Below, one piece after another: positions 283 through 9,164 of a stretch of DNA of 64,000 bases (position 1 is the first letter of the stretch; every line of letters starts with the position of its first letter). The position numbers and the translations under genes are program-made. This DNA comes from Deltaproteobacteria bacterium (GTDB lineage: Bacteria > Desulfobacterota > Syntrophia > Syntrophales > UBA2210). The notes under the pieces are model-generated. The model saw only the letters and a program-made list of their open reading frames with translations. It was not told the DNA's origin and searched no databases. The stretch covers positions 1 to 64,000 of the forward strand of contig JAFGTS010000045.1 in assembly GCA_016933965.1 (NCBI GenBank), read 5' to 3'.

Positions 283-1131
283 TTATTTAAAATTTTTCCG
301 TTCAGTCGTTTTTGCGGCCCTGGCTATGAGATAATCCATGATCGGATAGATCATGGTGCCCGATATTCTTGTGAGAAAATAAAGCATTTTGGTTTCAAAC
401 CCGGGCAGGATCAGATATTTCCCGCGTGCAATATCCCGCAGAATGATGGCAGCCACCGATTCTGCCGACATGGCCTTGACATTTTTCGACAGTGCTTTGG
501 TTACGTAAGGCTTTAATGCTTCCGCATTGACAAACATCGGTGTCTCTGTATCCGGTGGCAGTGCGACGGATACCCTGATACCCAGCGGTTTTACTTCGGC
601 GCGCAATGTGTCGGAGAAACCCATCACGGCGAACTTGGAAGCACAATAAGCCGTATATCCAAAAACTCCGAGAAAGCCTGCAACCGATGATATGTTTATA
701 ATATGACCGGACCCCCGTTCAATCATCCCCGGCAAGACTGCCTTGGTGACATGTACGGTTCCATGATAATTGACATCCATCGTCCGTCTGAATATTTCCA
801 GATCCAGATCCTGAACACAACCGGGATGCGAAACACCTGCAGAATTAATTACAAAGTCGGGGAGGCCCGCATCTCGACTCATCCGGTCTATGGCTTCATT
901 GATCGAATCGGGATCCCGGACGTCGGCTGAAACCGCCCCGATATGTACGCTCGGATTGTTTTGAATGCTTCTGATGATTTCCAGGGCACTATCCAACGTT
1001 TCACGGTTCCGTGCCAAGAGATGAATATGGCACCCCTGAGTAGACAGGTTTTGAGCCAGCGCAAGACCGATGCCGCTGGACCCGCCGGTTATGAGTACCT
1101 TCTTACCCCGGAAAAAACTTTCAAATCTCAT
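283..1131 (-). CDS. Short-chain dehydrogenase/reductase resembling 3-ketodihydrosphingosine reductase
   Basis: The 282-residue protein is a classical Rossmann SDR: TGGSSGIG at 15-22 binds NAD(P), NSAG lies at 96-99, Ser148/149 with Tyr162-x3-Lys166 form the active site. Arg41 after the second strand suggests NADPH preference. The segment PPDTETP (192-198) and a hydrophobic C-terminal stretch (about 245-270) match eukaryotic KDSR, which reduces 3-ketosphinganine, better than generic SDRs. This is recalled similarity, not a search result. The start at 1131 has a GGAGGT ribosome site seven bases upstream; an ATG at 1146 lies before that site. The gene diverges from the TetR gene and may share its operator. 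The substrate is unproven; another long-chain keto compound is possible. Confidence 0.72.
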   Translation of the reverse strand: MRFESFFRGKKVLITGGSSGIGLALAQNLSTQGCHIHLLARNRETLDSALEIIRSIQNNPSVHIGAVSADVRDPDSINEAIDRMSRDAGLPDFVINSAGVSHPGCVQDLDLEIFRRTMDVNYHGTVHVTKAVLPGMIERGSGHIINISSVAGFLGVFGYTAYCASKFAVMGFSDTLRAEVKPLGIRVSVALPPDTETPMFVNAEALKPYVTKALSKNVKAMSAESVAAIILRDIARGKYLILPGFETKMLYFLTRISGTMIYPIMDYLIARAAKTTERKNFK

Positions 1132-1210
1132 ATCCGTTACCTCCATGCCCCAATAATACCCAGCAATTCAAGTAGGTTATTCATCACTACGGTCCTGCTG
1201 AAAAAATATC

Positions 1211-1239
1211 TTGACACAATCCGACTCATCTATTAATTA
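1211..1239 (+). promoter_or_regulatory. Sigma70-type promoter of the TetR-led operon
   Basis: A perfect -35 TTGACA (1211-1216) is separated by 17 bp from the -10 TAATTA (1234-1239). The -10 lies inside the palindrome at 1233-1260, so a repressor bound there would block RNA polymerase. Confidence 0.78.
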
Positions 1240-1260
1240 ATTGAACGTTCATTTAATTAA
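1233..1260. promoter_or_regulatory. Palindromic operator, probably for the adjacent TetR protein
   Basis: This 28-bp inverted repeat is symmetric at 26 of 28 positions, with core TGAACGTTCA and AT-rich TTAATTAA arms. It overlaps the -10 box and the start point of the tetR promoter and ends 13 bp before the tetR start codon. Length, symmetry and position are typical of TetR-family autoregulatory operators. It lies about 100 bp from the divergent SDR start and could control both directions. Confidence 0.72.
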
Positions 1261-1273
1261 TTCTGAGGATATC

Positions 1274-1887: not shown

Positions 1888-3606
1888 ATGGGAACAGACA
1901 CCGTTATCCGTGAGATTTTCGAAACGATGCCGGCACGGTTCCGGTCCGGCGAAGCGGATGCCACCATCACGGTTGTCCTCGGCTTTGATATCGAGGACAT
2001 CAAATGGACCCTTTCCGTTCGCGGTGGCGGGTGTTCTGTAACAGACTCCTTGAAAAAAAATACCGATGCCGTGATCAAGACCGGGAAAGAAGAATGGATC
2101 GGTATTGCCACCGGTATGGCCGATCCCGTTGCCCTTTTCCTTGCCAAGAAGCTCTCGGTTGAAGGGGATATGGGAGCGGCCCTGGCCGCCATGAGCCTTT
2201 TCGACACGTACGTTTCGGACCTGGTTGTTATTAAGGACCCTTCGTGGATCGTTGACACCCTGGGAACACATTTCACTGTCGATGAGAACGGTCACTTCAT
2301 GATTGAATCCTGCGATTGTACGGACCTGGCCAAAGAATACGGAACGCCTCTCTTTGTCACCTCGGAACAACAACTCCGCGAAAATATCAGAACGGTCAAA
2401 GCGGCTTTCATCAACGCCTATACCGAAAATGAAGTCAACGTGATGTGGGCCATTAAATCAAATACCACGTTAGCCTTTCGGAAGATCATGAACGAAGAAG
2501 GTGTGGGAGGAGATTGTTTCAGTCCTGGAGAAATTTATGCCACCTTTATTTCGGGGGCGGACCCCGAGCTTTTTGTTTTGAACGGTTCCGACCGGAGCGA
2601 AGAGGCTTTTCGCATGGCCATTGAAATCGGCATGCGTATCACCCTGGATCATCTGGATGACTTATACATCGTCGAGGCGCTTGCCCGTGAGTACAACAGG
2701 CAGGTTCAAGCATTCATACGGGTCAAGTGTGAACTGCCGAGTCTTAAATCCGTAAAGTCGACTTTTGCCCCGGGGATCACTCTCCCCTTGGAAGTCCTCA
2801 ACCTGAAGTTCGGTGTTACCTATGACGAGGCAGTGGAAATAGCGCACGCTGCGCACCAGTTTCCTCATGTCATGATAGAAGGAATTCATTCACATATTGG
2901 TAGAGACGTGCATCTTCCCGATCACTGGTACGGATACGCTTACGACATGGTGGAGCTGTGCAGCAGATTCGGGCGTGATACAGACATTACTGCGCACATT
3001 CTGGACCTCGGCGGGGGCTTTGCCGAAAAACGCGATCCTTCAAGCCATGACCTGTCAAAGCTGGCGGCGCCGATTGAAGACTATGCCCGGCAGGTTGGCG
3101 AGGGAATCCGTCAGGGGTGCAGGGATTTTAATTTCCCCCATCCCCGTTTGTGGATCGAACCGGGGCGTCATCTCATCGGGACAACGACAGTCATGATCAG
3201 TCGTGTCGGGAACGTGAAACGCACACCCGGCATCGGTACGTGGGTCCATGTTGACGCCTCCTGCAATTTCCTGCCGTCGGTGGAACGTCACAACGGCATG
3301 AGCTACCATCTGCTGGCAGGAGCCCGGGCACGGGCACGGGCAGAGGAAGTGGCCGATGTGGTCGGTCCCAACTGTTCCGGAGATATAATTCAGCCCCGGA
3401 GGAGATTGCCCCGCATGGAACGGGGTGACCTTCTCATCTTTCTCGATGTGGGTGCCTACAACCAGGTCGCGGCAAACCAATTCAACAGTATCCCCCGCCC
3501 TGCCTCGGTGCTGGTCAATGGTAGCAAGGTCGATATCGTCCAGGAACGAGAAACCATTGCAGACATATTCGCCCGCCAACGGATACCGGCCAGATTTCTC
3601 AAGTGA
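1888..3606 (+). CDS. SCP2 sterol-carrier domain fused to a fold-type III PLP decarboxylase
   Basis: The protein has 572 residues and an unusual domain order. Residues 1-112 look like an SCP2 lipid-binding domain. Residues 125-570 are an alanine-racemase-fold decarboxylase of the ornithine/diaminopimelate/carboxynorspermidine group. PLP-site features are present: WAIKSN with Lys190 (Schiff base), HSHIGRD (334-340), LDLGGGF (372-378), EPGR (424-427), GPNCSGD with Cys496, and GAYNQ with Tyr524. The active site thus appears intact, although CSGD replaces the usual CESGD, one residue shorter at the substrate-specificity loop. The start at 1888 follows a GAGGAGG ribosome site. I infer decarboxylation of an amino acid or amino-acid conjugate with a hydrophobic part presented by the SCP2 domain. 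The substrate cannot be read from the sequence. Confidence 0.78.
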   Translation: MGTDTVIREIFETMPARFRSGEADATITVVLGFDIEDIKWTLSVRGGGCSVTDSLKKNTDAVIKTGKEEWIGIATGMADPVALFLAKKLSVEGDMGAALAAMSLFDTYVSDLVVIKDPSWIVDTLGTHFTVDENGHFMIESCDCTDLAKEYGTPLFVTSEQQLRENIRTVKAAFINAYTENEVNVMWAIKSNTTLAFRKIMNEEGVGGDCFSPGEIYATFISGADPELFVLNGSDRSEEAFRMAIEIGMRITLDHLDDLYIVEALAREYNRQVQAFIRVKCELPSLKSVKSTFAPGITLPLEVLNLKFGVTYDEAVEIAHAAHQFPHVMIEGIHSHIGRDVHLPDHWYGYAYDMVELCSRFGRDTDITAHILDLGGGFAEKRDPSSHDLSKLAAPIEDYARQVGEGIRQGCRDFNFPHPRLWIEPGRHLIGTTTVMISRVGNVKRTPGIGTWVHVDASCNFLPSVERHNGMSYHLLAGARARARAEEVADVVGPNCSGDIIQPRRRLPRMERGDLLIFLDVGAYNQVAANQFNSIPRPASVLVNGSKVDIVQERETIADIFARQRIPARFLK

Positions 3607-3673
3607 GCGGAGGCTTTGAAACCGGCCGGTCCGGAGATTAGTCCGTCATGTAGAAAGAAAGGGGGTGCAAACC

Positions 3674-5110
3674 ATGAAAATCCCGAAGAAAGGGATGCGG
3701 AAAAAAGAGCTTTTTGATCTGTTGGAAGAATATCGTTCCGATGATGTGAATTGGCGCAGCGGGCGGGTTATGGGTTACATATATGACGCCGGGCGTGAGG
3801 CAGAAGCGGTGGGAAAAGAAGCGTACATGATGTTTCTCACGGAAAACGGCCTTGATCCCACGATCTTCCAAAGCCTTCTGCGCCTCGAAAACGATCTGGT
3901 ATCAATGGCAACCTCCCATTTAAACGGAGATGCCGACGTTGTCGGAAACTTCACGAGCGGGGGCACGGAGAGCATCATTCTCGCGGTAAAAACAGCCCGT
4001 GATTACTTCAGGGCTCGGAAACCCCATATCAAAGAACCGGAAATGATTCTGCCCATGACGGCGCATGCTGCCTTTTACAAGGCGGCAGAGTACTTGGATG
4101 TACGCCCCGTGAGAGTTCCCGTTGACAGCAAGACCTTCAGGGCCGATGCCGGTGAAATAGCCAAAGCAATCGGTCCGAACACAATTCTTCTCGTCGGTTC
4201 GGCCCCGTCATATGCCCACGGTGTTATAGATCCGATCGCGGATATTGCCGCTTTGGCGTTGGAAAAGGGATTGCTCTTTCACGTGGACGCCTGCGTCGGC
4301 GGATTCATGCTTCCCTATTTCCGGCGCCTCGGGGAACCGATTCCGGACTTCGACTTCGGTGTCCCAGGTGTAACTTCGATATCGATGGATTTGCACAAAT
4401 ACGCATACACACCGAAGAATGCCTCCATGGTCTTCTATCGCACGAAGGAACTGCGGAAATACCAGCTTTTCGCTTGCTCGCGTTGGCCCGGGTATACCGT
4501 TGTCAACACTGCGGCACAAAGCAGTAAGTCAGGAGGACCTCTGGCCGCCGCATGGGCCGTTCTTCATTTCATCGGTGACGAAGGATACCTTGAGATTGCA
4601 CGTCATACCCTTGCAGCAACCCGTAAAATGGTCGCCGGCATAGAGGAAATCGAGGGACTCCGCATTATGGCTCGACCCGACATGTGCATGTTTTCATTCA
4701 CGTCGGATACCATCAATGTATTTCATATTATTGACGAGATGAAAAAGCATGGTTGGTACATCCAACCGCAGCTTGAATGCGAAGGTTCACAAAAGAACAT
4801 TCACATTTCGATAAACGAATCAAACGCCGGTCTTATAGATGAATTCCTGTCCGACCTGCGTGCAAGTGTTGAAAAGGCACAAACAATCAGCTCAAGCAAT
4901 TTTGTAAACGATGTAAAGCAGATACTTATAAGCAACACCGGGGAAGTGATAGGGGATGAGGATATCTCCCATCTGATGGGCATGGTAGGCGTTGAAGGCA
5001 ATCAGCTGCCGGAGAGCATGGCGGATATTAATGAGATTCTCAACATACTGCCTGCTGAATTACGCGAGCGTGTACTGATTCACTTCATCAATGAACTCTT
5101 TCATTCATGA
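3674..5110 (+). CDS. PLP-dependent lyase/decarboxylase of the sphingosine-1-phosphate lyase-like group
   Basis: This 478-residue protein belongs to the fold-type I group II decarboxylase family. Visible features are GNFTSGGTES (91-100, phosphate cup), His131 (stacks on PLP), HVDACVGGF with Asp205, and SMDLHKYAYTPK with Lys242 as Schiff-base lysine. The HKYAYTPKNAS context and GGTES motif resemble sphingosine-1-phosphate lyases more than glutamate decarboxylases; MfnA-type tyrosine/aspartate decarboxylases are the main alternative. An extra tail of about 80 residues (from about 400) has no counterpart I recognise. No N-terminal membrane anchor is present, unlike eukaryotic S1P lyase. The start at 3674 follows AAAGGGGG; a GTG at 3665 overlaps that site. 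It follows the SCP2 fusion gene after 67 bp in the same operon. Confidence 0.78.
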   Translation: MKIPKKGMRKKELFDLLEEYRSDDVNWRSGRVMGYIYDAGREAEAVGKEAYMMFLTENGLDPTIFQSLLRLENDLVSMATSHLNGDADVVGNFTSGGTESIILAVKTARDYFRARKPHIKEPEMILPMTAHAAFYKAAEYLDVRPVRVPVDSKTFRADAGEIAKAIGPNTILLVGSAPSYAHGVIDPIADIAALALEKGLLFHVDACVGGFMLPYFRRLGEPIPDFDFGVPGVTSISMDLHKYAYTPKNASMVFYRTKELRKYQLFACSRWPGYTVVNTAAQSSKSGGPLAAAWAVLHFIGDEGYLEIARHTLAATRKMVAGIEEIEGLRIMARPDMCMFSFTSDTINVFHIIDEMKKHGWYIQPQLECEGSQKNIHISINESNAGLIDEFLSDLRASVEKAQTISSSNFVNDVKQILISNTGEVIGDEDISHLMGMVGVEGNQLPESMADINEILNILPAELRERVLIHFINELFHS

Positions 5111-5235
5111 AAAGCAATGTATCAAAATGAAAGAAAGTCCAACGGCATAGGGCAATGGATTGTCCGGAACACCGGGTCAAATACTGAAGGCTGCCCTAAC
5201 TGTATGAGAAAATAATTGAGATGGGAGGTTCAGGT

Positions 5236-7050
5236 ATGACGGCGAAAAAAGGCAAAGCAATAAAAATAGACCCGTTATTGATGGTGGTCTTATCGAAAAG
5301 ATTCGAGGCCATCAGCCGCGAGATGGCAAATACGATGTTACGCACGGGCCGCTCGGGGAACATCAATACGGCGAAGGACTTCTCCTGTGGCATAACCGAC
5401 GCGCAGGCGAGAATGGTATGCCTTGATGAAGGTTTGCCCGTCCACATCGGCGGGGCGGGACTGGCGGCGAAGTACATGACCGATGTCTCTGACGACATTC
5501 GTCCGGGTGACTGTTTCATCCATAACTCACCCTATCACGGAAACAACCATAACGCCGACCACACGTTAATGGTACCCGTATTTTATCAAGGAAAGCATAT
5601 TTTTACCACCATTGCCAGGGCACACCAGGCCGACATCGGTAACCATGACCCATCCGCATATGTTCCCTTTGCCAGGGATATTTACGATGAAGGCGCCATT
5701 GTCTTTCCCTGCGTCCGCATACAGCAGAACTACAAGGACGAGCAGGACATAATCAGGATGGCCAAAGTCAGGATACGCGCACCTGAGCAATGGTACGGTG
5801 ACTATCTGGCAGAGCTCGGCGCGGTGAGGACGGGCGAGAAAAGAATTATGGAAATGTGTGATAAATACGGCCTCGATGTCGTGATGGCCTTTGCCGAGCA
5901 ATGGCAGGAGTATGGCAAACGAAGGATGATCGAAGCAATACGGGCCCTTCCCAAAGGTGTCTGGGAGAATGAGACGCGGCATGACCCGCTTATTTTCGTC
6001 GTCCCCGATGGAGTGCCCGTCAGAGTCAGGATGGAGATAGATCCTGAAGAGGCTTATATCAAGCTTGATTTCACCGATAACATCGACTGCATACCTGCCG
6101 GATTAAACATGTCTGAGGCATCCGTTATAGCCTGTGCCGTCGCCGGCGTTCTGAACAACCTTGATCCCACGCTCCCCCATAACTGGGGTGCCTTTAGCCG
6201 TATATTAATTACCATGCGTGAGGGAAGCGTGGTCGGTCGGGTACCTCACCCCGTTTCCGCTTCAATGGCAAGCACAAACATTGCTGATCGCGTGATTAAT
6301 GTGGTCCAGTCCTGTTTTGCCAAGGTGCGGGATGATCTGGGCTTGGCGGATGGCGGGCTGGGCATGCCTGCTGCCGCAGGGAGCATTTTCGGCGTGGATT
6401 GGCGCAGAAACAATGCTGTCTATGTTCGCCAGCTTATTATGGGTGCTATGGGTGGTCCCGGGCATTACGGTTACGATGGGTGGCTGGGTTATGGAATACC
6501 TGTGACCGGGGGCGTCGTCCATCTCGACTCGGCGGAAGTGGACGAACTGGCGTTACCTATTCTCATTGAAAAACACGAGCTCATCACGGATTCGGGAGGA
6601 GCAGGCCGGTGGCGTGGCGCACCCGGTGTAGAGTGCCGTCAACGTCCACGGCATGACGCCGGTTCATGGGGTTTTATCAGCGATGGGCACTACAATCCTG
6701 CCCAGGGCGTGAACGGTGGACAGGCAGGACGGCCTTCCGATGTATGGAAATACGATATCAGTAAGGGTGAGGAGTCCAAAACCGATTTGCCCAAAATCTC
6801 ATTGGAAATGGTGCAGCCGACGGAAATGCTGGTATCGGAGTCCTGCGGCGGCGGTGGTTTCGGGGATCCTCTCGAGCGTGATCCTGAAAGGGTCAGATAT
6901 GATGTGCGCGAGGAATACGTTTCTCTGGAAGCGGCGCGGGAGGTCTACGGTGTTGTCCTTGATACCGGGCCTGAGCTGTATGCAGTTGACCTTAAAGCCA
7001 CCAAAACATTACGAAAGGAACTCAAAAAGAACAGGGAGGCCGTAAAATGA
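5236..7050 (+). CDS. Hydantoinase B/oxoprolinase-family subunit (HyuB type)
   Basis: The 604-residue length is usual for HyuB. The N-terminal segment with GDCFIHNSPYHGNNHNADH and the following ARAHQADIG match the conserved metal-binding region of hydantoinase B, oxoprolinase and acetone-carboxylase alpha-type subunits. The C-terminus carries the glycine-rich CGGGGFGDPLERDPE signature. These proteins work with a HyuA partner in ATP-dependent hydrolysis of a cyclic amide or carboxylation of a ketone. The start at 5236 has GGGAGGT seven bases upstream; the ATG at 5221 precedes it. The stop overlaps the start of hyuA by four bases (ATGA), so the subunits are translationally coupled. No third (gamma) acetone-carboxylase subunit is present. 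The substrate is unknown. Confidence 0.82.
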   Translation: MTAKKGKAIKIDPLLMVVLSKRFEAISREMANTMLRTGRSGNINTAKDFSCGITDAQARMVCLDEGLPVHIGGAGLAAKYMTDVSDDIRPGDCFIHNSPYHGNNHNADHTLMVPVFYQGKHIFTTIARAHQADIGNHDPSAYVPFARDIYDEGAIVFPCVRIQQNYKDEQDIIRMAKVRIRAPEQWYGDYLAELGAVRTGEKRIMEMCDKYGLDVVMAFAEQWQEYGKRRMIEAIRALPKGVWENETRHDPLIFVVPDGVPVRVRMEIDPEEAYIKLDFTDNIDCIPAGLNMSEASVIACAVAGVLNNLDPTLPHNWGAFSRILITMREGSVVGRVPHPVSASMASTNIADRVINVVQSCFAKVRDDLGLADGGLGMPAAAGSIFGVDWRRNNAVYVRQLIMGAMGGPGHYGYDGWLGYGIPVTGGVVHLDSAEVDELALPILIEKHELITDSGGAGRWRGAPGVECRQRPRHDAGSWGFISDGHYNPAQGVNGGQAGRPSDVWKYDISKGEESKTDLPKISLEMVQPTEMLVSESCGGGGFGDPLERDPERVRYDVREEYVSLEAAREVYGVVLDTGPELYAVDLKATKTLRKELKKNREAVK

Positions 7051-9164
7051 GTTACAGATTATGTATCGATATCGGAGGGACATTTACCGACCTTGTTGTA
7101 GTAGACAGAAAAGGACATGTGAATATATATAAATCGCCGACCACTCCGGATAATTATGCCGATGCATTTATCGACGTTCTCAAACAGGCGGCCGGTTCCT
7201 ACAAAATTCCCCTGGAAAGATTCATGGAGGAATGCAGCACCTCGGCGGGAGGCTACTTTGCACATGGTTCCACGGTAAGCACCAATGCCATCATTGAGGG
7301 AAAGGTTGCGAAGACCGGACTCATCTGCACACATGGTTTTCGTGATGTCCTGACCGGACGGGAGGGCGGCAAGGAGGAACCCTACAACTGGCAAATGGAG
7401 TATCCGCTTCCCTATATTCCACGATACCTGACCGTGCCCGTTACGGAGAGGGTGAATTCTGAAGGTGAAATTGAGAGGCCCCTTGATGAAAAAGAGGTGC
7501 GTGATGCCATTAAAAAGCTGAAAGGCTTCAAAGTAAATGCCATAGCCGTTGCATTACTCTGGTCGATAGCAAATAACGCGCACGAGCTGAGAATCGGAGA
7601 ACTCATTGAGGAAGTCTGGCCGGGTATTCCCTATAGCCTGAGTCACCAGGTAAATCCATGCATCAGAGAATACAGGCGAACGTCATCGACTGCCATAGAT
7701 GCTTCTTTAAAGCCGCTTATAAGCAGCTATGTAGCCATGTTACAAAAACGGCTGGCTGAAATAGGCTACAAGGGGGAGCTTTCGTTATTTACCTCAAGCG
7801 GCGGTGTCGTGTCGGTTGATGAGCTTGTTAAAAGGCCTGTTTACAGCGTGGATTGCGGGCCGGCACTGGCGCCGAGTGCCGGGAGACTGATCGCGGGACA
7901 TGAATTCGGGGTTGATAACATCATTACCACGGATATGGGAGGAACAAGTTTTGATGTGGCCTGCATCACGAACGGTGAACTGGCCGTTACCCGTGAATCG
8001 CTGGTGGACACCCATATGCTGGGCATTAATAAGATCGACAGCAAATCAATCGGTGCCGGCGGAGGCAGTATAGCCTGGGTGGACAGCGGTGGGTTACTGC
8101 ATGTCGGTCCAAAAAGTGCAGGGGCCATGCCCGGTCCCGCCTGCTATGGCAAAGGAGGTACCGAGCCGACAGTCACCGACGCGAATGTGTCTCTGGGATA
8201 TCTTGACCCCGGTTTCTTCCTCGGTGGAAAAATGAAACTTGACGCCGGCCTGGCTGCAGAAGCTATTAATAAAAGCGTTGCGAAACCTTTAAAACTCTCA
8301 GTGGATGAAGCTTCCTATGCCATTTGGGGGGCGGTGAACGTTGAGATGTGCAATTTGATACAGGATATCACTATCTGGAAGGGCATTGATCCGCGTGAGT
8401 ACATGATCGTTTCCGGTGGAGGCGCGGCAGGCCTGCATATAGGGGCTATTGCCTCGGATCTGGGCGTGAAGAAAGTGTTAATCCCGCGGGTGGCTGGTGT
8501 TCTCAGTGCCTATGGAGGAGCCTTCGCGGAGATCACTTCAGAGTTCAGCGCCAGCAAATTCACAGAAAGTGGGACTTTTGACTATGAAGGCATCGGTGAG
8601 ATATTGGAGAACCTGGAAAAACAGGCAGCGGACTTCCTGCAGCGCATGGGGGTGCCGAAGAAATTACGCAAAATAAAATTTTATACGGATGCACGGTACC
8701 CCAACCAGGTATGGGACATCCCAATACCCCTGCGCAGCAATAGAATCAGCGGTCAGAATCAACTTGAACGGCTGGTGAACGATTTCCACAATACCCACGA
8801 GAAGGTCTTCACGGTGAAAGCACCTGAAGAACCCGTAGAGTTCATATACTGGCGCGCCGTGGCGATCGGTAAGCCGACTCGGGTAGCAATGCCGGAACTG
8901 CCTGCAGATTCGAAAAGTGCTGATGGCGCTGTTAAAGGAAAGAGGAAAGCATATTTCCGCGAACTTGGAGGAAGAGTGGATACCGCGGTCTATGACGGAT
9001 CAAAACTGAAGCCGGGTAAAAAGATTCCCGCTCCTGCCATCATTGAGGAACCAACGACCACGGTGCTAATCATGCCGGGCTCGAAAGCATCGATTACAAA
9101 ATACGGTAATTACCTCATTGAAATTGGACAATCATCGGGAAAAACGCGCACGGATAAAAAATGA
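7047..9164 (+). CDS. Hydantoinase A/oxoprolinase-family subunit (HyuA type)
   Basis: This 705-residue protein is the ATP-binding partner of HyuB. It begins with the actin-like phosphate-binding loop IDIGGTFTD (7-15), followed by HGSTVSTNAIIEGK, TTDMGGTSFDV and the SIGAGGGSIAW segment, all hallmarks of HyuA/HydA. The family phosphorylates a carbonyl or amide substrate with ATP in the ATPase subunit so that the partner can hydrolyse or carboxylate it. It is the last gene of the island operon, and 161 bp separate it from the right tRNA repeat. No terminator hairpin is obvious after the stop. The rather frequent TTA and AAA codons differ from the GC-rich codon choice of genes after 9.6 kb. Confidence 0.84.
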   Translation: MSYRLCIDIGGTFTDLVVVDRKGHVNIYKSPTTPDNYADAFIDVLKQAAGSYKIPLERFMEECSTSAGGYFAHGSTVSTNAIIEGKVAKTGLICTHGFRDVLTGREGGKEEPYNWQMEYPLPYIPRYLTVPVTERVNSEGEIERPLDEKEVRDAIKKLKGFKVNAIAVALLWSIANNAHELRIGELIEEVWPGIPYSLSHQVNPCIREYRRTSSTAIDASLKPLISSYVAMLQKRLAEIGYKGELSLFTSSGGVVSVDELVKRPVYSVDCGPALAPSAGRLIAGHEFGVDNIITTDMGGTSFDVACITNGELAVTRESLVDTHMLGINKIDSKSIGAGGGSIAWVDSGGLLHVGPKSAGAMPGPACYGKGGTEPTVTDANVSLGYLDPGFFLGGKMKLDAGLAAEAINKSVAKPLKLSVDEASYAIWGAVNVEMCNLIQDITIWKGIDPREYMIVSGGGAAGLHIGAIASDLGVKKVLIPRVAGVLSAYGGAFAEITSEFSASKFTESGTFDYEGIGEILENLEKQAADFLQRMGVPKKLRKIKFYTDARYPNQVWDIPIPLRSNRISGQNQLERLVNDFHNTHEKVFTVKAPEEPVEFIYWRAVAIGKPTRVAMPELPADSKSADGAVKGKRKAYFRELGGRVDTAVYDGSKLKPGKKIPAPAIIEEPTTTVLIMPGSKASITKYGNYLIEIGQSSGKTRTDKK

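What the first reader, a model, noticed from the sequence alone, without database searches (positions are those of the whole stretch)
1888..3606. SCP2 domain fused to a DAP/ornithine-type decarboxylase
SCP2 domains normally carry acyl-CoA or sterols, while fold-type III decarboxylases act on small polar amino acids. Joining them suggests a decarboxylase for a lipidated or long-chain amino acid. The catalytic Lys190, His334/336, Cys496 and Tyr524 are conserved, but the specificity loop is one residue shorter than in canonical enzymes (CSGD).
Basis: partly seen in the sequence, partly recalled or inferred. Interest (0 to 1): 0.74.

Follow-up and report, generated by a model that had tools for sequence, protein, structure and literature searches.

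The report
Lipid-carrier domain fused to PLP decarboxylase
A real but very rare bacterial protein joins a small lipid-binding (SCP2) domain to a vitamin-B6-dependent amino-acid decarboxylase that lacks the residues needed for lysine, ornithine or diaminopimelate, so it probably works on an unknown, more hydrophobic amino acid.

Summary
Window 1888-3606 (+) is one uninterrupted 572-aa frame: residues 29-106 match Pfam SCP2 (E 2.5e-12) and residues ~131-572 are a fold-type III PLP decarboxylase (closest solved structure M. jannaschii DAP decarboxylase, Z 46). The fusion is not a misassembly: an independent MAG contig (L037) encodes a 65%-identical protein across the same junction, and both domains evolve under constraint. 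It is rare: only those two among everything searched.

The enzyme is not a DAP, ornithine or lysine decarboxylase. All 30 LysA compared have RP-x-x-Y and C-E-S-G/S-D; this protein has neither, and its genome carries a separate LysA. It sits, as its own deep branch, in an uncharacterised subfamily that shares the missing acidic residue and the one-residue-shorter loop; other members lack SCP2. It lies between a TetR gene with a 30-bp palindrome and an S1P-lyase-family gene, followed by hydantoinase B/A genes. The genome has no detectable serine-palmitoyltransferase-type enzyme and carries other SCP2 fusions.

Best reading: a decarboxylase for a hydrophobic, acyl- or thioester-bearing amino acid, with SCP2 recruiting the substrate. 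Substrate, domain geometry and activity are untested. New variant of a known kind.

The parts
1888..2223 (+). N-terminal SCP2 domain (residues 1-112)
   Evidence: Pfam SCP2 29-106 E 2.5e-12, and 1.6e-13 on the N-terminal piece; domain model matches alkylsulfatase SCP2-like domains Z 13.2 and archaeal SCP2 Z 12.5; model confidence moderate, pLDDT 68
2278..3603 (+). fold-type III (alanine-racemase-fold) PLP decarboxylase domain (residues 131-572)
   Evidence: Pfam Orn_Arg_deC_N and Orn_DAP_Arg_deC; best PDB 1twi E 5.4e-45; model Z 46.0, rmsd 1.7 over 428 residues to M. jannaschii DAPDC
2455..2457 (+). codon of Lys190, predicted Schiff-base lysine
   Evidence: invariant in 38 sequences; aligned with the lysine of LysA
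3247..3327 (+). specificity-helix region, residues ~454-480 (HVDASCNFLPSVERHNGMSYHLLAGAR); lacks LysA RPxxY
   Evidence: alignment with 30 LysA and 37 other rows
3373..3384 (+). Cys496 loop, C-SGD in place of C-E-S-G/S-D: the acidic distal-amine residue is missing
   Evidence: role of the Glu from PMC8277567
1274..1873 (+). TetR-family regulator, first gene of the predicted operon
   Evidence: Pfam TetR_N and TetR_C_37; stop 14 bases before the fusion ORF
1232..1261 (.). 30-bp palindrome (15-nt arms, 93% complementary) before tetR: predicted TetR operator
   Evidence: function inferred
283..1146 (-). divergent SDR with a PPDTETP motif resembling 3-ketodihydrosphingosine reductases
   Evidence: adh_short E 2.4e-52; KDSR model 130 bits against a cut-off of 400, PRK06181 higher at 189; TSC10 among many PDB hits
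3665..5110 (+). sphingosine-1-phosphate-lyase-family PLP enzyme (fold type I)
   Evidence: PDB 3mad E 2.9e-92, 313 bits, against 107 bits for MfnA
5221..7050 (+). hydantoinase B / oxoprolinase-type subunit
   Evidence: Pfam Hydantoinase_B E 2.6e-127
7047..9164 (+). hydantoinase A / oxoprolinase-type subunit, overlaps the previous gene by 4 bases
   Evidence: Pfam Hydantoinase_A E 1.2e-81; caprolactamase alpha model 654 bits, below its cut-off of 1000

Best explanation
The protein is a PLP-dependent amino-acid alpha-decarboxylase of the alanine-racemase fold whose side-chain pocket is not built for a distal amino group. Its substrate is most likely an alpha-amino acid with a hydrophobic, acyl or thioester-linked side chain. 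The N-terminal SCP2 domain binds the hydrophobic part and raises its local concentration at the enzyme, by analogy with the SCP2-like domain of alkylsulfatases and with UbiJ, whose SCP2 domain binds ubiquinone intermediates. It belongs to a TetR-controlled operon with an S1P-lyase-family C-C lyase or decarboxylase and an ATP-dependent hydantoinase/oxoprolinase pair, probably for using or removing an external amphipathic amino compound. Shown by sequence: the fusion, the two folds, the intact PLP apparatus, the lost DAP/ornithine determinants, the gene order. Inferred: decarboxylation, a hydrophobic substrate, co-transcription, TetR control, a catabolic role.
For: SCP2 profile and fold matches. 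Decarboxylase fold Z 46 with K190, D209, E424, C496, Y524 kept. All 30 LysA carry C-E-S-G/S-D and RPxxY and P0001 carries neither; in T. maritima DAPDC, Glu315 binds the distal amine and a hydrophobic residue there is required for D-amino acids with hydrophobic side chains (PMC8277567). The genome's own LysA is a separate gene, 31% identical. SCP2 in the same genome is also fused to an AMP-dependent acyl ligase, a thiolase-associated Zn-ribbon protein and a flavodoxin-like reductase. SCP2 binds hydrophobic intermediates in UbiJ (PMC6747719). Codon positions 1 and 2 are more conserved than position 3 in both domains between P0001 and L037. Operon spacing and the 30-bp palindrome.
Against: No ligand, activity or expression data. 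The SCP2 domain model has pLDDT 68 and rests on two sequences, and its position relative to the active site is unknown. Unfused subfamily members share the loop lacking the acid and manage without SCP2, so the changed pocket does not by itself point to a lipid. Where the subfamily's context is readable it can look like polar amino-acid metabolism (amino-acid ABC transporter and agmatinase-like genes in Microvirga, read by eye).
Confidence: 0.45

Rival explanations
1. SCP2 is a scaffold or membrane-docking tag with no part in substrate choice: the enzyme decarboxylates an ordinary small or medium amino acid, like its unfused relatives, and SCP2 holds it near a partner enzyme or a membrane.
For: Relatives at 29-41% identity keep the pocket without SCP2. 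SCP2 is a promiscuous add-on in this genome, 9 domains in 8 proteins with unlike partners. SCP2 is less conserved than the decarboxylase between the two fused proteins, 44% against 72%. UbiJ organises a multi-enzyme complex.
Against: The fused pair forms a deep separate branch (tree) with a specificity-helix region (SCNFLPxVxRHNGxSYHLLxG) unlike any unfused relative, so the pocket did change in the fused lineage.
Confidence: 0.3
2. The operon degrades sphingoid-type lipids: an S1P-lyase-like enzyme and a KDSR-like reductase with an SCP2-decarboxylase that removes CO2 from a long-chain amino acid intermediate.
For: DECII (3665-5110) is in the S1P-lyase family, 313 bits to StSPL. The divergent SDR has a PPDT-x-TP motif like KDSR (motif recalled; sequence). 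A Microvirga replicon also has a decarboxylase of this subfamily about 4 kb from an S1P-lyase-like gene 38% identical to DECII.
Against: No alpha-oxoamine synthase is found in the 97%-complete genome with TIGR01825 or TIGR00858, each of which rings in 13 of 14 controls, so no serine palmitoyltransferase of that family was detected; only external lipids remain. Relatives of DECII in the class sit in unlike contexts. In the StSPL alignment a histidine recalled as phosphate-binding (His129) is Asp in DECII. The KDSR model scores far below its cut-off.
Confidence: 0.1
3. The substrate is an amino acid held as a CoA or carrier-protein thioester, as BtrK decarboxylates ACP-linked glutamate; SCP2 recognises the acyl-CoA or thioester.
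For: BtrK is a structural neighbour, Z 40, and acts on a carrier-linked amino acid (PMC7857480). Two other SCP2 fusions in the genome are of CoA-thioester type.
Against: No CoA ligase, thiolase or carrier protein was seen in the operon; several DAPDCs are equally near or nearer in fold.
Confidence: 0.1
4. It is a diverged diaminopimelate (LysA) or ornithine decarboxylase.
For: TIGR01048 lysA is the best NCBIfam model at 284 bits; nearest fold is DAPDC.
Against: 284 bits is below the lysA cut-off of 297.9; RPxxY and CES are absent; a separate LysA exists; the tree parts it from LysA with 100/100 support.
Confidence: 0.03

Closest known systems
Diaminopimelate decarboxylase LysA (TIGR01048; M. 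jannaschii 1twi)
   Same: Fold (Z 46), PLP lysine, GGG loop, EPGR, catalytic Cys and Tyr
   Different: Extra N-terminal SCP2; no RPxxY; no Glu after Cys; HIGR in place of HIGS; below the LysA score cut-off
Alkylsulfatases SdsA1/Pisa1/SdsAP with C-terminal SCP2-like domain
   Same: An SCP2-like domain joined to an enzyme acting on hydrophobic substrates; the closest fold of the SCP2 part, Z 12.4-13.2 (PMC5426288)
   Different: Metallo-beta-lactamase catalytic domain, SCP2 at the C-terminus; unrelated chemistry
BtrK (L-glutamyl-[BtrI ACP] decarboxylase)
   Same: Same fold, Z 40; a precedent for a non-basic, carrier-linked substrate
   Different: No SCP2; 21% identity in the structural alignment
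Citryl-amino-acid decarboxylases (FslC/FigC, SbnH)
   Same: Same fold; precedents for bulky substrates through a moved specificity helix and a changed Cys loop
   Different: No SCP2; 15-19% identity; no siderophore genes seen next to this one
Unfused type III decarboxylase subfamily (L038-L074, L076-L082 and L085: Chloroflexota, Vibrio, Rhodobacterales, Halieaceae)
   Same: Nearest relatives, about 28-41% identity; same shorter Cys loop and, in most, HxGR
   Different: No SCP2 in the protein or in the searched flanks; different specificity-helix motif

Membership tests
SCP2 (PF02036) | profile score over Pfam's gathering cut-off | tested here: met
   47.5 and 51.3 bits against 21.3
SCP2 (PF02036) | SCP2 alpha/beta fold | tested here: met
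   Z 12.5 over 100 residues to A. fulgidus SCP2, 11.0 to human MFE-2 SCP2; model pLDDT only 68
SCP2 (PF02036) | binds a lipid or acyl-CoA in the tunnel | not testable with these tools
   needs a binding assay
Fold-type III PLP decarboxylases | TIM barrel plus beta domain, PLP lysine, conserved Cys and Tyr | tested here: met
Fold-type III PLP decarboxylases | decarboxylase activity | not testable with these tools
   needs an enzyme assay
Diaminopimelate decarboxylase (LysA) | score over TIGR01048 cut-off | tested here: not met
   284.4 against 297.9 bits
Diaminopimelate decarboxylase (LysA) | RPxxY and Cys-Glu-Ser loop that bind the distal part of DAP | tested here: not met
   FLPSVERHNG and C-SGD; role of the residues from PMC8277567
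Ornithine/lysine/arginine decarboxylases | acidic residue after the loop Cys for the distal amine | tested here: not met
   Ser497 follows Cys496; no acidic residue at the LysA Glu column. No ODC sequence was in that alignment; the equivalence rests on PMC8277567
Sphingolipid pathway operon | serine palmitoyltransferase in the genome | tested here: not met
   no match to TIGR01825 or TIGR00858; genome 97% complete
S1P lyase family (neighbour 3665-5110) | closest to S1P lyases rather than to MfnA/GAD | tested here: met
   313 against 107 bits; substrate not tested

The most novel reading that the evidence does not exclude
A PLP decarboxylase dedicated to lipid-linked amino acids (for example a lyso-lipid serine or a long-chain amino acid): SCP2 extracts the lipid and hands it to a fold-type III active site, a way of making or breaking amino-lipids not known for this fold.
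Probability: 0.1. Interest if true: 0.8.

Novelty: new variant of a known kind. Interest (0 to 1): 0.45.

Why it matters
Known fold-type III decarboxylases act on small charged amino acids, citryl-amino acids or a carrier-linked glutamate. An SCP2-fused member that has lost the distal-amine determinants points to a hydrophobic amino-acid substrate class and gives a compact, testable operon. It also marks a widespread subfamily, in Vibrio (several copies per genome), Chloroflexota and Rhodobacterales, that generic annotation is likely to call 'diaminopimelate decarboxylase' although the DAP-binding residues are missing.

Tried and rejected
Misassembly: rejected, L037 has the same junction. LysA or ODC identity: rejected on residues, score cut-off and tree. 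Fused orthologues in close relatives: none in 100 relatives, 155 genomes of the class or 395 of the phylum, nor elsewhere in 149 genomes of the L037 class and 396 of its phylum. The first genome-contig scan with 8-mers from P0001 alone found no relative; a viral-contig scan found none. Both collection scans use short patterns, so more fused copies may exist. SCP2 as a separate neighbour of unfused relatives: none found with a local HMM over all ORFs of the loci. DECII homologue in the L037 genome: only weak hits, E 3.7e-12 at best. dN/dS: dS saturated, so only codon-position identity is quoted. Papers joining SCP2 and DAP decarboxylase: none in the held library. S-methylmethionine decarboxylases (SMMDC, BurI) were seen in the literature as another non-diamine relative but no sequence was on hand to compare.

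Full report
What is there. Window 1888-3606 on the + strand is a single 572-codon frame. Residues 29-106 score 47.5 bits against Pfam SCP2 (cut-off 21.3; 51.3 bits on the N-terminal piece alone), and residues 164-522 match both halves of the ornithine/DAP/arginine decarboxylase fold. The best solved relatives are M. jannaschii DAP decarboxylase for the main part and mammalian SCP2 for the first part. An AlphaFold2 model on 38 sequences has a well-predicted decarboxylase (most residues above pLDDT 90) that superposes on 1tuf/1twi with Z 46.0. The SCP2 part, modelled alone from two sequences (pLDDT 68), matches alkylsulfatase SCP2-like domains (Z 13.2) and A. fulgidus SCP2 (Z 12.5).

Is the fusion real? 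Yes. A scan of 84,980 species genomes with a subfamily alignment found L037, a 3.4-kb contig of a Thermoanaerobaculia MAG, with 65% identity from residue 4 to the contig end at 494, across SCP2, linker and decarboxylase (SCP2 E 4.4e-10). Identity between the two is 44% in SCP2 and 72% in the decarboxylase; codon positions 1/2/3 are 60/62/35% and 77/85/37% identical, so both parts are under purifying selection. The fusion is otherwise absent from every set searched. Pattern-based scans can miss copies, and a short contig in a MAG bin may be misbinned, so the host of L037 is less certain than its sequence.

What the decarboxylase is not. In an alignment with 30 LysA and 37 other rows, every LysA has RPxxY and C-E-S-G/S-D. 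P0001 has FLPSVERHNG and C-SGD. (L037 shares the first change; its contig ends before the Cys loop.) In T. maritima DAPDC two arginines hold the distal carboxylate and Glu315 of the partner subunit holds the distal amine; a hydrophobic residue in its place was needed for D-Phe and D-norleucine (PMC8277567). The family's substrate choice is set by the Cys loop and the specificity 3-10 helix (PMC7857480). P0001 also falls below the curated LysA cut-off, and the genome has its own LysA.

What it is. A maximum-likelihood tree separates LysA and LysA-like rows from the subfamily with 100/100 support. In the subfamily the fused pair, a group of mostly Halieaceae and other gammaproteobacteria, and a Chloroflexota/Vibrio/Alphaproteobacteria group are deep branches. 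The members with a readable loop share the shorter Cys loop; the fused pair has a specificity-helix motif of its own, SCNFLPxVxRHNGxSYHLLxG.

Surroundings. TetR (1274-1873) ends 14 bases before the fusion ORF, with a 30-bp near-perfect palindrome just before it (1232-1261). Downstream come an S1P-lyase-family enzyme (3665-5110; 313 bits to StSPL, 107 to MfnA) and overlapping hydantoinase B and A genes. A divergent SDR (283-1146) has a KDSR-like PPDTETP motif but no family assignment over cut-off among the models shown. A Microvirga megaplasmid also places a decarboxylase of this subfamily about 4 kb from an S1P-lyase-like gene 38% identical to the window's; it is the only such case in the loci examined. 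A sphingolipid reading is tempting, but the genome gave no match to two alpha-oxoamine synthase models that ring in 13 of 14 control genomes, so it does not appear to make sphingoid bases.

SCP2 in this genome. There are nine SCP2 domains in eight proteins: besides P0001 they are fused to an AMP-dependent acyl ligase (C55), doubled and joined to a Zn-ribbon/OB protein beside a thiolase-like gene (C44), and fused to a flavodoxin-like reductase (C48); the others are in short, apparently stand-alone frames. Two of the three other fusion partners are of acyl-CoA type (partners named by reading the sequences, not by profile). This supports SCP2 as a hydrophobic-substrate module and argues against a fusion by chance, but it also shows that SCP2 is easily joined to unlike enzymes.

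Mechanism. Shown: both folds, intact PLP apparatus, lost distal-amine and distal-carboxylate motifs, operon-like spacing. Inferred: alpha-decarboxylation of a hydrophobic, acyl- or thioester-bearing amino acid recruited by SCP2. Precedents: SCP2-like domains on alkylsulfatases (PMC5426288), UbiJ/UbiT (PMC6747719), and BtrK acting on carrier-linked glutamate (PMC7857480). Not known: substrate, stereochemistry, geometry of SCP2 and active site, physiological role.

Verdict. A genuine, rare domain architecture, not described in the literature held here, in a subfamily that no curated model names: a new variant of a known kind, of moderate interest.

Noticed in passing
L003 (G000:C44 ~13.8-14.4 kb), L004 (G000:C55 ~5.3 kb), L152 (G000:C48 ~23.0 kb): Other SCP2 fusions in the same genome: tandem SCP2 + Zn-ribbon/OB protein beside a thiolase-like gene, AMP-ligase + SCP2, flavodoxin-like reductase + SCP2.
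   Followed up: partly
L153 (G000:C42 ~73.6 kb) and L140:4030-5674: A stand-alone SCP2 protein directly followed by an M24 creatinase/prolidase-like gene in two genomes; in L140 the next gene is an S1P-lyase-like gene on the other strand.
   Followed up: partly
L071:2148-3986; L035:7968-10160: Other C-terminal extensions in the subfamily: decarboxylase + glyoxalase domain (Solirubrobacterales MAG) and decarboxylase + SDR in one 730-aa frame (Halioglobus plasmid; may be two genes joined by a frame).
   Followed up: partly
L045-L058, L060, L061, L064, L065: Several Vibrio genomes carry two or more copies of the subfamily; many copies lie near aldehyde-dehydrogenase-like, acetate-kinase-like or transporter genes (read by eye).
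   Followed up: no
L036:6574-9377, L059:5222-8019, L062:8524-11327: Tandem pairs of subfamily decarboxylases overlapping by 4 bases in Rhodobacterales, possibly a heterodimer.
   Followed up: no
L138, L144: S1P-lyase-like genes near a TPP enzyme, SDRs and a bile-acid/BASS-type symporter (read by eye) in relatives of the window's genome.
   Followed up: no
G000 whole genome: No match to alpha-oxoamine synthase models (TIGR01825, TIGR00858), BioF included, in a 97%-complete genome.
   Followed up: partly
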